DNA from: Bryobacterales bacterium
GTDB taxonomy: Bacteria > Acidobacteriota > Terriglobia > Bryobacterales > Bryobacteraceae
NCBI GenBank assembly: GCA_003142355.1
Contig: PLMF01000426.1
Coordinates: forward strand, 6,885-30,806
DNA length: 23,922 nt
Direction of reading: 5' to 3'
Part shown: positions 1 through 20,135 of the stretch, in pieces
Numbering within the stretch: the stretch's first letter is position 1
Layout of the letters: every line of letters starts with the position of its first letter
The notes under the pieces: model-generated
Databases searched by the model: none
What the model saw: only the letters and a program-made list of their open reading frames with translations
What the model was told of the DNA's origin: nothing
Made by a program: the position numbers and the translations under genes

Positions 1-641
1 ACGCAGATGGTCTGGGCTTGGCCCTCGCGCGCGAAGCGCAGCGCTTGTCGGGCGGCCTCGCGCGGGTCGGTGATGAGGGCGTCGGCAAACTGGCGCGGGC
101 GCAGCGTGCCATCGGGCTCGTACCGCCGGTCGGCGAAAGCCTCCGCCGCCACCTCCATCCCCATTTGGCGCCAAACGTCCAGCATGGGGGAGCCGGCCAG
201 GCCGAAGAGCGTGACGCGCGGGTCCCAGGCCGCCGCCCCGGCGGCGATGGCGCGCGCCACTTCCGTATTCCGCACGGCCACGTTGTAGAGCGCGCCGTGG
301 GGCTTGACGTGAACGACGCGGCCGCCGAGGCTGCGCACCACGGCGTCGAGCCGCTCGATCTGCTGGCGCACCGTGCGCTCGATTTCGGCGGCGGGCATGG
401 GGATCGCAATGCGCCCGAAATTGGCGCGATCGGGATAGCCGGGATGCGCTCCGATGCGCACGCCCCGCGCGATGGCCAGGCGCGCGGTGCGCTCCATGGA
501 GGCCTCGTCGCCGGCGTGGCCGCCGCAGGCGATGTTGGCGGAAGTCACGTACTCCATCAGCGCGGCTTCATGCCGGGCGTCTTCCAACTCGCCCATGTCG
601 CAATTGAGATCGATGGTCATACGGGCGTAGGGGCGAGGCAT
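1..641 (-). CDS. pxpA: 5-oxoprolinase subunit PxpA (LamB/YcsF family), partial
   Basis: PxpA is the LamB/YcsF-type subunit of the bacterial PxpABC 5-oxoprolinase, which opens 5-oxoproline to glutamate using ATP in the cytoplasm. The visible 213 residues carry family landmarks: an N-terminal IDLNCDMGE stretch, then SANIACGGHAGD, GAHPGYPDR and VKPHGALYN. The gene runs off the left edge, so the last few dozen residues of a roughly 250-residue family are missing. I chose the ATG at 641 because a strong GGGGAGAGG ribosome site lies just before it; the in-frame ATG at 620 fits the usual family N-terminus but has no such site. It starts 9 bases after the stop of the PxpB-PxpC fusion, so it is the third gene of the operon. 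Family assignment is firm; the exact start is moderately sure. Confidence 0.93.
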   Translation of the reverse strand, partial: MPRPYARMTIDLNCDMGELEDARHEAALMEYVTSANIACGGHAGDEASMERTARLAIARGVRIGAHPGYPDRANFGRIAIPMPAAEIERTVRQQIERLDAVVRSLGGRVVHVKPHGALYNVAVRNTEVARAIAAGAAAWDPRVTLFGLAGSPMLDVWRQMGMEVAAEAFADRRYEPDGTLRPRQFADALITDPREAARQALRFAREGQAQTIC

Positions 642-650
642 GCCTCTCCC

Positions 651-2243
651 CTACAACAGAGCATACAGCCATTGCTCCTGCTCGCGCAGCAGATCGAGCG
701 CCTGCTCGAGGGTGACGCGCTCGAAGCTCACTTCGTCGCGTGGCCGCAATTGACCGAGACGCCAGAAATCGGCCGAGATCACGTTGGCGGGTTTGGGATA
801 CCCTCCGGTGGTCTGGTGCTCGACGAAGAGAATTATCGGCTGGCCGTCCGGCGGGATTTGGAGGGCGCCCAGCGGCACGCCCTCGGTGAGCATGTGGCCC
901 GCCGGGCTGGGAATAGCCGGGCCGCGCAGGCGGAGCCCCATGCGGTCGGATTCTTCGGCCACTCGATACGCGGCAGCGTAGATCTCGCCGGAAAACCAGT
1001 GCGCCTGCGGTCCGGGGGTGACCCGCAACGGGCCGGCGCGCGCGAACTCGGGAGCGCGGCGCGGCACGGCGCGCGGCCGACGGATGGCCGCGCCGCCGAT
1101 GGGAAGCACGTCGCCGGCGCGCAACGGACGGCCGCCCACCCCAGTCATGACGTGGACGGAAGCGCTGCCCATCACCTTGGGCACGCCGATGCCGCCGCGC
1201 ACCGCCAGGTAAGCCCGCGCCCCGGAACGAGTCGCGCCGCAACGCACGGTCTCGCCGGCTTTAATCTCGATGGCGGTCCACAGAGGCAGGCCGGCGCCAA
1301 AATCGGAGCCGGTGAGGGCGATGACGGCGTCGGTTTGGAACTCGAAAGCGCCGCCCAGGAGGGTCATTTCTAGCGCGGCGGCGTTTTCGGCATTGCCCAC
1401 CAGGAGGTTGCCCGCCCGCAGGGCCAGGGGATCGGCGGCGCCGGACGCGGAAACGCCGAAATGGGTGTAGCCGAAGCGGCCGAGGTCCTGGATGGTGGTT
1501 TGGAGGCCGGGGGAGAGGACGCGGATGTGTGAGGAAGTTGGTGGGCAGGCGGAACCGCCTGCCCCACCTGCCAAAACACCGGTGACGAGGGGGTGTCCTC
1601 TGGGCCCGGCGCTACACGGAGTGAAGCGCACGCGGTCGCCCATGCGCAGCAGCGGTGGCGGCGAAGCTTGGGGATCGAACAGGCGCAGCGGCGTGCGTCC
1701 GACGATGCGCCAACCGCCGGGCGACGCCAGAGGGTAGATGCCGGCCTGGCTGCCGCCGATGGCTACGCTGCCGGCGGGCACGTGTTTCCGCGGCGCGGAA
1801 AGCCGCGGCGTGGCGAGCTCGGGCGGGAGACCGCCCAGGTATGGAAAGCAGGTGGCGAAGCCCACGAAATAGACCAGGTAGTCCGCCGCGGCGTGCAACT
1901 CGACCACGCGCTCGGGGAACAGGCCGGCGTGGCGCGCCACGTCCTCCAGGTCGGGGCCGAATTCACCTCCGTAGCAGACGGGGATCTCCATCACGCGGGC
2001 CACGCGGGCTTCGTCGCGGGCGGCCTCCATGCGCTCGCGCGCCAGAGCTTCGAGATCCGCGTGGCTGCGGAGCCGGGGGTCGAAATCGATCAGGACGGAT
2101 GCGAACGCGGGATGCAGATTCAGGACGCCGCGCTCGCCCTCCAGAGCGTGGGTGAGGCGCGACACCTGGTGGTGCGCCGCGATCGAGATTTCGTCGCCAA
2201 ACGAGATGAAAAGCGAGCGGTCGCTCGCCGGCTGGATCGTCAC
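651..2243 (-). CDS. pxpBC: Fused 5-oxoprolinase subunits PxpB-PxpC (KipI-KipA type)
   Basis: This 530-residue protein joins the two other 5-oxoprolinase subunits, elsewhere often separate genes. Residues about 1-209 match PxpB/KipI (allophanate hydrolase subunit 1 family), with CFPYLGGLP near 132, PRKHVPAGSVAIGG near 151 and SPGGWRIVGRTP near 174. Residues about 240-530 match PxpC/KipA (subunit 2 family), opening with RVLSPGLQTTIQDLGRFGY. The roughly 30-residue linker between them (AGGAGGSACPPT and flanks) is translated from a palindromic repeat, described separately. The GTG at 2243 gives the normal PxpB N-terminus; a TTG at 2252 overlapping the transporter stop is an alternative, and no good ribosome site distinguishes them. 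The gene lies directly after an MFS transporter and before pxpA, which supports a role in 5-oxoproline uptake and hydrolysis. Fused PxpBC proteins occur naturally, so the enzyme may well work. Confidence 0.9.
   Translation of the reverse strand: MTIQPASDRSLFISFGDEISIAAHHQVSRLTHALEGERGVLNLHPAFASVLIDFDPRLRSHADLEALARERMEAARDEARVARVMEIPVCYGGEFGPDLEDVARHAGLFPERVVELHAAADYLVYFVGFATCFPYLGGLPPELATPRLSAPRKHVPAGSVAIGGSQAGIYPLASPGGWRIVGRTPLRLFDPQASPPPLLRMGDRVRFTPCSAGPRGHPLVTGVLAGGAGGSACPPTSSHIRVLSPGLQTTIQDLGRFGYTHFGVSASGAADPLALRAGNLLVGNAENAAALEMTLLGGAFEFQTDAVIALTGSDFGAGLPLWTAIEIKAGETVRCGATRSGARAYLAVRGGIGVPKVMGSASVHVMTGVGGRPLRAGDVLPIGGAAIRRPRAVPRRAPEFARAGPLRVTPGPQAHWFSGEIYAAAYRVAEESDRMGLRLRGPAIPSPAGHMLTEGVPLGALQIPPDGQPIILFVEHQTTGGYPKPANVISADFWRLGQLRPRDEVSFERVTLEQALDLLREQEQWLYALL
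1540..1610. repeat. Palindromic repeat element, copy A, inside pxpBC
   Basis: A near-perfect palindrome has 10-bp arms, GGGCAGGCGG at 1543-1552 and CCGCCTGCCC at 1555-1564, with two bases between. About 25 bases further on lies a 22-base module at 1589-1610. That module matches 20114-20135 in 21 of 22 positions, in the same orientation and again just downstream of a GGCAG-type hairpin. The element is translated in full as the PxpB/PxpC linker on the minus strand. It resembles REP-like elements that occasionally insert in coding sequence. I can see two copies here; genome-wide abundance is inference. Confidence 0.75.
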
Positions 2244-10563: not shown

Positions 10564-10614
10564 GTAGGTAGGTCCCCGAACTCCGATGCTACCATACAAG
10601 GAGTAAACCCAGCG

Positions 10615-11562
10615 ATGAAGGGACTTACCGACATACCGGGCATTCGCGTCGGGCACGTTTCCGATTACGATGCGATCACTGGCTGCACGGCCATCCTGTG
10701 CGAGCGGGGCGCCGTGGGCGGCGTAGACATACGCGGCTCGGCCAGCGGCACGCAGGAGATCGACACGCTCAGCCCCGGCCACGTGGTGGACCAGGTGCAC
10801 GCTATCCTGCTGGCGGGCGGCAGCGCGTTCGGCCTGGAAGCGGCCGCGGGCGTGCGCCGCTACCTGGCGCGGCAGGGGGCCGGCTACCTTTTTGGCGGCC
10901 AGCATATTCCCATCGTGCCCGCCGCCGTTCTGTTCGACCTCGAAATCGGCAAGCCGAATGTTCACCCCGGCCTGGCGATGGGCGAAGCCGCCGCCGCCGC
11001 GGCCACTACCGACGCGGTCAAAGAAGGATGCGTAGGCGCGGGCACCGGGGCGACCGTGGGCAAGCTCTTCGGCATGAAGCAGGCGATGAAGTCGGGGATC
11101 GGATCGTTCACCCTCACGCTCCCCGGCGGCGTGCTGGTCTCGAGCCTGGTGGCCGTGAACGCATTCGGCGACGTGCGCGACCCCGACTCCGGGAAGATCG
11201 TCGCCGGCGCGCGCAAGGCCCCCGACAGCCGGGAGTTCGCCGGCACGGTGGAGCAGATGTTACGGGGAGAGCTTGGCAGCCTCCAGCGCAGTCATACCAC
11301 GCTGGCGGTGGTCGCCACCAACGCCAGGCTGACCAAGGTTCAGGCCAACAAGCTGGCGCAATTCGCCAGCCTGGGGATGGCCCGCACCATCTACCCGGTG
11401 AATACGCTGTCCGATGGCGATACCGCCTTTGCGCTCTCGATTGGAGACCGCGAGGCAGATATCAATATGCTGGGTGTGGCGGCGGCGGAAGGGCTGGCCA
11501 GGGCTATCGTGCGCGCCGTGAGGTTCGCGAAGACCCTCGGGGGCGTGCCGGGGCTGGGGTAG
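10615..11562 (+). CDS. P1/DmpA-family (S58) peptidase
   Basis: A 315-residue member of the DmpA/P1 Ntn-like hydrolase family, which self-cleaves into two chains and acts as aminopeptidase, amidase or cyclic-amide hydrolase. Landmarks: TDIPGIRVGHVSD at the start, LLAGGSAFGLEAAAGV near 65-80, IPIVPAAVLFDL near 98-109, GCVGAGTGATVGK at 138-150 and SLVAVNAFGDV near 177-187. The chain break should lie just before that last motif; here the preceding residues read GGVLVSS, so a serine may be the nucleophile, whereas many relatives have threonine a few residues earlier. AAGGAG at 10598-10603 is the ribosome site, 11 bases before the ATG. It is divergent from mlaE with only about 50 bases between, and converges on the DUF2339 gene with a 2-base gap. 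Confidence 0.88.
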   Translation: MKGLTDIPGIRVGHVSDYDAITGCTAILCERGAVGGVDIRGSASGTQEIDTLSPGHVVDQVHAILLAGGSAFGLEAAAGVRRYLARQGAGYLFGGQHIPIVPAAVLFDLEIGKPNVHPGLAMGEAAAAAATTDAVKEGCVGAGTGATVGKLFGMKQAMKSGIGSFTLTLPGGVLVSSLVAVNAFGDVRDPDSGKIVAGARKAPDSREFAGTVEQMLRGELGSLQRSHTTLAVVATNARLTKVQANKLAQFASLGMARTIYPVNTLSDGDTAFALSIGDREADINMLGVAAAEGLARAIVRAVRFAKTLGGVPGLG

Positions 11563-20059: not shown

Positions 20060-20088
20060 GAGAGATCCGACGCCGCAACTGCAGTGGG

Positions 20089-20135
20089 GCAGATTGGCAA
20101 TCTGCGGCCGATTGGGGGTGCCCTCTGGGCCCGGC
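20089..20135. repeat. Palindromic repeat element, copy B
   Basis: A perfect hairpin, GCAGATTG at 20089-20096 and CAATCTGC at 20098-20105, is followed by a 22-base module at 20114-20135. That module matches 1589-1610 in 21 of 22 positions. The order and orientation (hairpin then module) are the same as in the pxpBC copy, with a shorter spacer. It lies where the body of a higB toxin gene would be expected, between vapB and higA. Confidence 0.7.

What the first reader, a model, noticed from the sequence alone, without database searches (positions are those of the whole stretch)
1527..1616. A palindromic repeat forms the linker that fuses PxpB to PxpC
The hairpin and 22-base module of copy A are translated in frame as residues about 210-239, exactly between the end of the PxpB domain and the first residues of PxpC. 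The encoded AGGAGGSACPPT segment has nothing to do with either family. The simplest reading is that insertion of a mobile palindromic repeat removed the pxpB stop and created a fused gene, or that it entered an existing linker. Either way it is a repeat-encoded peptide tolerated in a core enzyme.
Basis: partly seen in the sequence, partly recalled or inferred. Interest (0 to 1): 0.72.

Follow-up and report, generated by a model that had tools for sequence, protein, structure and literature searches.

The report
Mobile palindromes form an enzyme's linker
In a group of soil Acidobacteria two enzyme genes have become one, and the stretch joining the two protein parts is written by short dispersed DNA palindromes that differ even between close relatives.

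Summary
Confirmed, and larger than reported. The window is Bryobacterales (Acidobacteriota) DNA. All three recur, dispersed, in related genomes. In 17 of 18 related loci pxpB and pxpC are separate genes. The 49 fused protein clusters plus L001 form one clade (98/95) with linkers of 22-72 residues in seven peptide families; linker family carries no phylogenetic signal (31 changes; shuffled mean 30.7). The window's hairpin, read otherwise, spells other strains' linkers (LVGRRNRLPH, VGQAVPPA), so DNA rather than peptide is what spreads. The module also lies in frame in DnaX, PriA, EtfA and other genes of genome G001, and adds 4 codons in 8 of 8 cleanly matched linker pairs. AlphaFold leaves the linker unstructured. 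Not shown: that a repeat created the fusion. The first-branching fused protein (P0016, rest grouped at 88/85) has no recognised repeat, which favours fusion first. The mover is unknown; 20 RAYT loci held neither module nor full DGRGS element. Closest precedent: Rickettsia palindromic elements.

The parts
651..2243 (-). fused pxpB-pxpC gene, 530 aa
   Evidence: same domain order as solved protein TTHA0988 (3oep)
1527..1622 (-). 32-codon interdomain linker, almost wholly repeat DNA
   Evidence: absent from unfused relatives; pLDDT below 50 at residues 214-216 and 220-233 of P0002
1575..1615 (.). 41-bp member of the GTAGCGCCGG..CCGGTGTT palindrome family (29 bp without the module)
   Evidence: sequence; family pattern in 7 of 25 genomes, reversed-pattern control 0
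1591..1605 (+). module core GGGTGTCCTCTGGGC nested in the 41-bp palindrome (22-base form 1589-1610)
   Evidence: GGGTGYCCTCTGGGC in 11 of 22 genomes, 33 copies in G001, control 0
1540..1568 (.). CAGGCGG/CCGCCTG hairpin repeat (perfect core 1543-1564)
   Evidence: GGCAGGCGGWWCCGCCTGCC in 8 of 22 genomes, 43 sites in G006, control 0
20114..20135 (+). second copy of the module, with another stem (about 20083-20105) before it, between genes
   Evidence: position between genes judged by eye
3..620 (-). pxpA, cut by the window start
   Evidence: NF003814, 239 bits against a cut-off of 226

Best explanation
In one Bryobacterales clade the neighbouring, usually overlapping genes pxpB and pxpC became a single gene once. 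The join is a flexible segment that tolerates almost any open reading. Dispersed short palindromes enter it and are lost or replaced there so often that linker identity carries no phylogenetic signal. They are held only to being stop-free and a multiple of three; one palindrome is used in three different readings. A smaller repeat of about 15-17 bp sits nested in these palindromes and also in frame in other genes. Shown: repeat origin of the linker in the window and L001, separate genes in most related loci, one fused clade, strain-to-strain change of the linker, several readings of one palindrome, module in other coding sequences. Inferred: movement of the repeats (no event was watched), repeat origin of linkers known only as protein, disorder and near-neutrality of the linker, and the order of fusion and first insertion.
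For: Dispersed copies with zero-count reversed controls. 17 of 18 related loci unfused. One fused clade, 98/95, and linker family random on the tree, 31 changes against a shuffled mean of 30.7. The window's hairpin spells the linkers of P0023, P0039 and P0044 in other readings; 12 seven-letter words shared against a mean of 0.0054, at most 2, in 4658 random pieces. One L002 site spells two linker families. 26 of 1248 eight-letter linker words occur elsewhere against 0 reversed and 0.58 shuffled. L012 has repeats at the same junction between separate genes. Module in frame in other genes. Linker predicted unstructured.
Against: DNA of fused relatives was available only for the window, L001 and the independent fusion L094; other linkers were assigned by peptide motif. 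Two linker families (YPAHRF in 6 of 49, LLPAVSR in 2 of 49) were not tested as DNA repeats, and P0016 has no recognised repeat. Six-letter words did not separate linkers from controls. The tree's bootstrap had not settled and many inner branches are weak. No insertion with intact flanks or target duplication was seen for the larger palindromes.
Confidence: 0.78

Rival explanations
1. A palindrome inserted at the overlap of pxpB and pxpC, removed the stop, shifted the frame and thereby created the fusion; later repeats replaced it.
For: Separate genes with an overlapping stop and start in relatives, pxpC in another frame; the linkers of the window and L001 are net 64 and 40 nt longer than the 32-nt junction of L005 and L006, both 1 modulo 3, which joins the frames; an independent fusion L094 has a palindrome in its linker; L012 has repeats inserted at the same junction.
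Against: P0016, first branch of the fused clade, has no recognised repeat in its linker; G002 has the two genes in one frame with only a stop between, so a fusion needs no repeat.
Confidence: 0.35
2. Linkers are exchanged between strains by recombination in the flanking pxpB and pxpC sequence, rather than by fresh insertion in each strain.
For: Linker family is random on the tree while the same families recur in distant branches, e.g. YPAHRF in 6 rows.
Against: One palindrome in three readings at the junction and with/without-module pairs in several linker families need repeated local change, not only exchange.
Confidence: 0.3
3. The fusion or the linkers are assembly or gene-calling artefacts at repeats.
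For: Most fused sequences come from metagenome contigs and repeats are where assemblies fail.
Against: 49 clusters, 48 distinct linkers, all open and in frame between the two halves of one gene; L001 is a separately assembled genome. The set was found by searching with a fused protein, so in-frame members are favoured.
Confidence: 0.04
4. An ordinary G/P-rich linker that resembles repeats by chance.
For: The linkers are rich in G, P, A and S.
Against: Exact DNA copies elsewhere with zero-count reversed controls; shuffled and reversed linkers do not match.
Confidence: 0.02

Closest known systems
Rickettsia palindromic elements (Ogata 2000, 2002; known here only through passages of PMC10969869 and PMC2229807)
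   Same: Dispersed palindromes found in frame inside conserved protein genes, apparently tolerated by the host protein
   Different: RPEs are about 100-150 bp with a peptide of their own; here the units are about 15-58 bp, are read in several frames and both strands, lie between two domains of a fused gene and differ between close relatives
REP elements, including the GTAG-tagged superfamily (PMC3733652, abstract and passages)
   Same: Short (20-40 bp) high-copy palindromes; one family here starts with GTAG; REP insertions inside coding sequences are reported there
   Different: No RAYT gene was found flanked by the module or the full DGRGS element; the GTAG tag was part of my search pattern and so not tested
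MITE/ERIC-type open-reading-frame fusions (PMC2229807, PMC2759123; passages and listing)
   Same: Small mobile sequences fused in frame to other reading frames
   Different: MITEs are about 100-200 bp with terminal inverted repeats; not seen here
Natural PxpB-PxpC fusion TTHA0988 (3oep)
   Same: Same domain order in one chain; phmmer E 4.5e-73 over residues 11-509
   Different: No repeat was looked for in its linker

Membership tests
Rickettsia palindromic elements | in-frame presence in conserved protein genes | tested here: met
   linker of pxpBC; module in 14 Pfam-bearing frames of 18 passing out of 33 copies (the L188 match is weak)
Rickettsia palindromic elements | length about 100-150 bp | tested here: not met
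   units of about 15 to 58 bp
Rickettsia palindromic elements | conserved encoded peptide | tested here: not met
   one palindrome in three readings; module read as GVPSGP, GPEGTP, GPRGHP, GCPLGP, RAQRAP
REP elements (RAYT-associated) | short high-copy palindrome | tested here: met
REP elements (RAYT-associated) | copies flanking a RAYT gene | tested here: not met
   20 RAYT loci, 0 with the module or full DGRGS element; two held 9-letter parts; only 20 of the matches were fetched
REP elements (RAYT-associated) | GTAG or CGTC tag | tested here: inconclusive
   one family begins GTAG but the pattern required it; the unbiased check had one case
MITE | target site duplication and terminal inverted repeats of an IS | not tested
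   no empty-site pair at DNA level for the larger palindromes
5-oxoprolinase PxpABC locus | pxpB, pxpC and pxpA together | tested here: met
   the PxpC equivalog NF045499 is below its cut-off (216.7 of 500) while TIGR00724 is above (280.2 of 230.2)

The most novel reading that the evidence does not exclude
The 15-17 bp module is itself a mobile micro-element: it replaces about 3-5 bp of its target with a net gain of 12 nt and so stays in frame by construction, seeding 4-codon insertions in loops of replication, repair and metabolic enzymes of Bryobacterales, while larger palindromes use the fused pxpBC linker as a landing site that turns over between close relatives.
Probability: 0.3. Interest if true: 0.82.

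Novelty: new variant of a known kind. Interest (0 to 1): 0.63.

Why it matters
It is a natural insertion experiment: one join between two enzyme domains, about fifty relatives, seven peptide families and three readings of one palindrome, all kept open. It shows selfish palindromes supplying a protein linker, extends the Rickettsia case to soil Acidobacteria, and offers a site where the rules and rate of palindrome movement could be read from population data. If the 15-17 bp module moves on its own with a net gain of 12 nt, it would be a remarkably small mobile unit (my judgement; not searched exhaustively in print).

Tried and rejected
RAYT link: Y1_Tnp matches occur in 24 of 25 genomes, but none of the 20 fetched RAYT loci (two of them from Firmicutes genomes) carried the module or the full DGRGS element; two held 9-letter parts. 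Not supported, not excluded.

EtfA: in 120 relatives the loop holding the module in G001 is longer in close relatives and often reads GPEGTP or GPEGAP, but protein lengths step less cleanly than in pxpBC (324, 325, 326, 328, 329, 332, 333, 336 and others) and my segment parser failed on 62 of 120. It supports insertion in a loop, not a strict 12-nt rule.

Nested DGRGS elements: 23 of 24 are 34 nt and one 35, against 22 nt without the module (the pattern allowed 26-46 nt). They may descend from one insertion, so they are not independent events.

With/without pairing: of 17 linkers with the module, 8 gave clean pairs of +4 codons, 3 pairs were set aside (P0004 -2 and P0035 +9, partner of another linker family; P0036 +8, wrong anchor) and 6 had no partner.

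Word test: six-letter words did not separate linkers from controls (180 of 1346 against 95 reversed and 199 for a PxpC segment); seven and eight letters did. In the first listing P0040 was missed by the pattern; it is in the later counts. P0055 was left out of the first tree because its PxpB end did not parse. Coding frames were chosen by a codon score trained on nine window ORFs; 15 of 33 copies did not pass. L098 was mis-measured (gap -33). Plasmid search: only distant pxp genes. The GTAG tag check failed once through a wrong stem length and then had too few cases.

Full report
What is there. The window carries an MFS transporter gene, a fused pxpB-pxpC gene (minus, 651-2243) and pxpA, a 5-oxoprolinase locus. 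The closest genome locus is a Bryobacterales MAG, L001, 88% identical. The PxpB and PxpC domains are intact and joined by 32 residues.

Are the pieces dispersed repeats? Exact pattern scans, each with a reversed-pattern control that gave 0: module core in 11 of 22 genomes, 33 copies in G001 (the genome of L001) and 89 in G002; hairpin core in 8 of 22, 43 sites in G006, 39 in G016, 2 in G001; GTAGCGCCGG family in 7 of 25, 6 copies in G001; the element that forms L001's own linker in 16 of 25, with 24 hits in G001 of which two are the linker arms. That last element, called DGRGS here after its peptide, is a palindrome of about 58 bp, ACCGCTCCCTGACGGTCGCGGCTC..GAGCCGCGACCGTCAGGGAGCGGT. No whole genome of the window itself was held.

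Unfused relatives. Of the 18 Bryobacterales-type loci L001-L017 and L045, 17 have pxpB and pxpC apart and one, L001, is fused. In 14 of 29 junctions measured (fused ones and the mis-measured L098 counted) the gap between conserved ends is 26 nt, with a TGA stop overlapping or touching the pxpC start and pxpC in another frame; a GGAGG-like stretch often precedes it (by eye). Among 237 genomes of the family 116 match the protein; in the listed rows, which were cut, only G001 and G023 give one unbroken span over both domains, and G002 gives one span with a TAG. L012 keeps the genes apart but has 271 nt at this junction holding a GTAGCGCCGG element and a near copy of the module.

The fused clade. 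The 49 protein clusters P0002-P0050 (P0002 is the window's own type; the other 48 are 81-92% identical) and L001 form one clade (98/95), with one fused/unfused change in the 60-row tree. In the wider 99-row tree the fused state needs three changes, the others being P0051/P0054/L094 and P0052/P0053. L094's linker also contains a palindrome, CCGGAAGCGC..GCGCTTCCGG. More distant fused proteins, P0063 and on, have linkers of nearly constant length, 25-31 where parsed. Linkers of the main clade are 22 to 72 residues, 48 distinct of 49. By peptide motif 40 of 49 belong to families whose DNA repeats I checked (DGRGS, the hairpin in three readings, LVTG, alone or combined), 6 to a YPAHRF and 2 to an LLPAVSR family whose DNA I did not check, and 1, P0016, to none (with P0034 reassigned by hand). 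Linker family needs 31 changes on the tree; shuffled labels need 30.7 on average, 26-33. Bootstrap had not settled and 20 of 57 inner branches are open, but starred pairs such as P0042/P0044 and P0014/P0047 have unrelated linkers.

DNA, not peptide, is what spreads. The window's own hairpin, read on the other strand, gives LVGRRNRLPH, found in P0023 and P0039; in another frame of the coding strand it gives VGQAVPPA, found in P0044. One site in L002 gives both GAGASACQP-type words, as in P0008, and VGQALPPA/GQALPPAN, as in P0037. Of 1248 eight-letter linker words, 26, in 12 of 49 proteins, occur in six-frame translations of L001-L017, L045 and the window with pxpBC masked; reversed linkers gave 0, 200 shuffles a mean of 0.58 and at most 4. 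Seven-letter words: 61 of 1297 against 10 reversed; in non-Bryobacterales loci 4 against 8. Six-letter words did not separate.

The module. Of 17 linkers with it, 8 have a clean partner without it, and all 8 are 4 codons longer; 3 pairs were set aside and 6 had no partner. At a second site inside PxpC, of 47 readable proteins 9 carry GPRG(R/H) and are 4 residues longer than 37 others; 1 is one residue shorter. At DNA level the DGRGS element with the module is 34 nt in 23 of 24 cases and 35 in one, against 22 without, perhaps all from one event. In G001, 18 of 33 copies lie in a stop-free best coding frame of at least 100 aa; 14 of these 18 have a Pfam match (that of L188 weak), among them DnaX, PriA, EtfA (two modules in tandem between its two domains), a MutS-domain-V protein, QueG, GH20, tricorn, an M28 peptidase and a PAS-histidine kinase; in 7 the module is inside a domain or has domains on both sides. 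Readings differ (GVPSGP, GPEGTP, GPRGHP, GCPLGP, RAQRAP).

Structure. AlphaFold gives mean pLDDT 85.8; residues 214-216 and 220-233 fall below 50, and the block with the second module site (391-400) averages 62 (51 sequences). Both sites are predicted flexible. A natural fusion of the same order is solved (3oep).

How it most likely works. Shown: a repeat-built linker, separate genes in most related loci, one fused clade, change from strain to strain, several readings. Inferred: repeats move into a tolerant linker under selection only for an open frame. Whether a repeat made the fusion is open. P0016, with linker IPVRDSGTAANPETGSRLETDPSSTRH and no recognised repeat, is the first branch (the rest group at 88/85), which suggests fusion first. 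L094 and the frame arithmetic allow the opposite: the window and L001 linkers are 64 and 40 nt longer than the 32-nt L005 and L006 junctions. The mover is unknown; 20 RAYT loci held neither the module nor the full DGRGS element.

What is known. Rickettsia palindromic elements are the precedent for palindromes in frame in conserved genes (PMC10969869 and PMC2229807, passages). REP insertions in coding sequences are reported (PMC3733652, passages). The Solibacter genome paper notes many short repeats, most under 50-100 nt (PMC3174227, passages). Paper searches listed no title or abstract describing this linker or module; the library holds open-licence papers only.

Noticed in passing
window 20083-20135: Copy B of the module follows another stem (CAGATTGGCAATCTG) and, by eye, lies between an AbrB/VapB-like and a HigA-like reading frame; a similar arrangement is at L067.
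   Followed up: partly
L197 790-1785 (G001 C187): An EtfA gene with two tandem modules (GPEGTPPGPEGTP) between its two Pfam domains; the loop is variable in relatives.
   Followed up: partly
L012 10640-10910: 271 nt of several repeats between unfused pxpB and pxpC, a separate arrival of repeats at the same junction.
   Followed up: partly
P0060 (294 aa, 92% identical PxpC): Begins MPHIRV like an unfused PxpC although it is as similar as fused members; may be a re-split gene, a gene call or a contig end.
   Followed up: no
L198 (G001 C204): A histidine kinase reads TGVPSGPVPSGPAGGNGVPYGPG, which looks like several modules in a row between PAS and HisKA domains.
   Followed up: no
L002 around 10600-10700: pxpB and pxpC are in the same frame with a TAG and an ATG between them, so a fusion there would need no repeat.
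   Followed up: no
L174 and L188 (G001 C36 and C117): Two module copies share the same flanks beside a transposase-like frame, so they are probably one insertion copied with a larger element.
   Followed up: no
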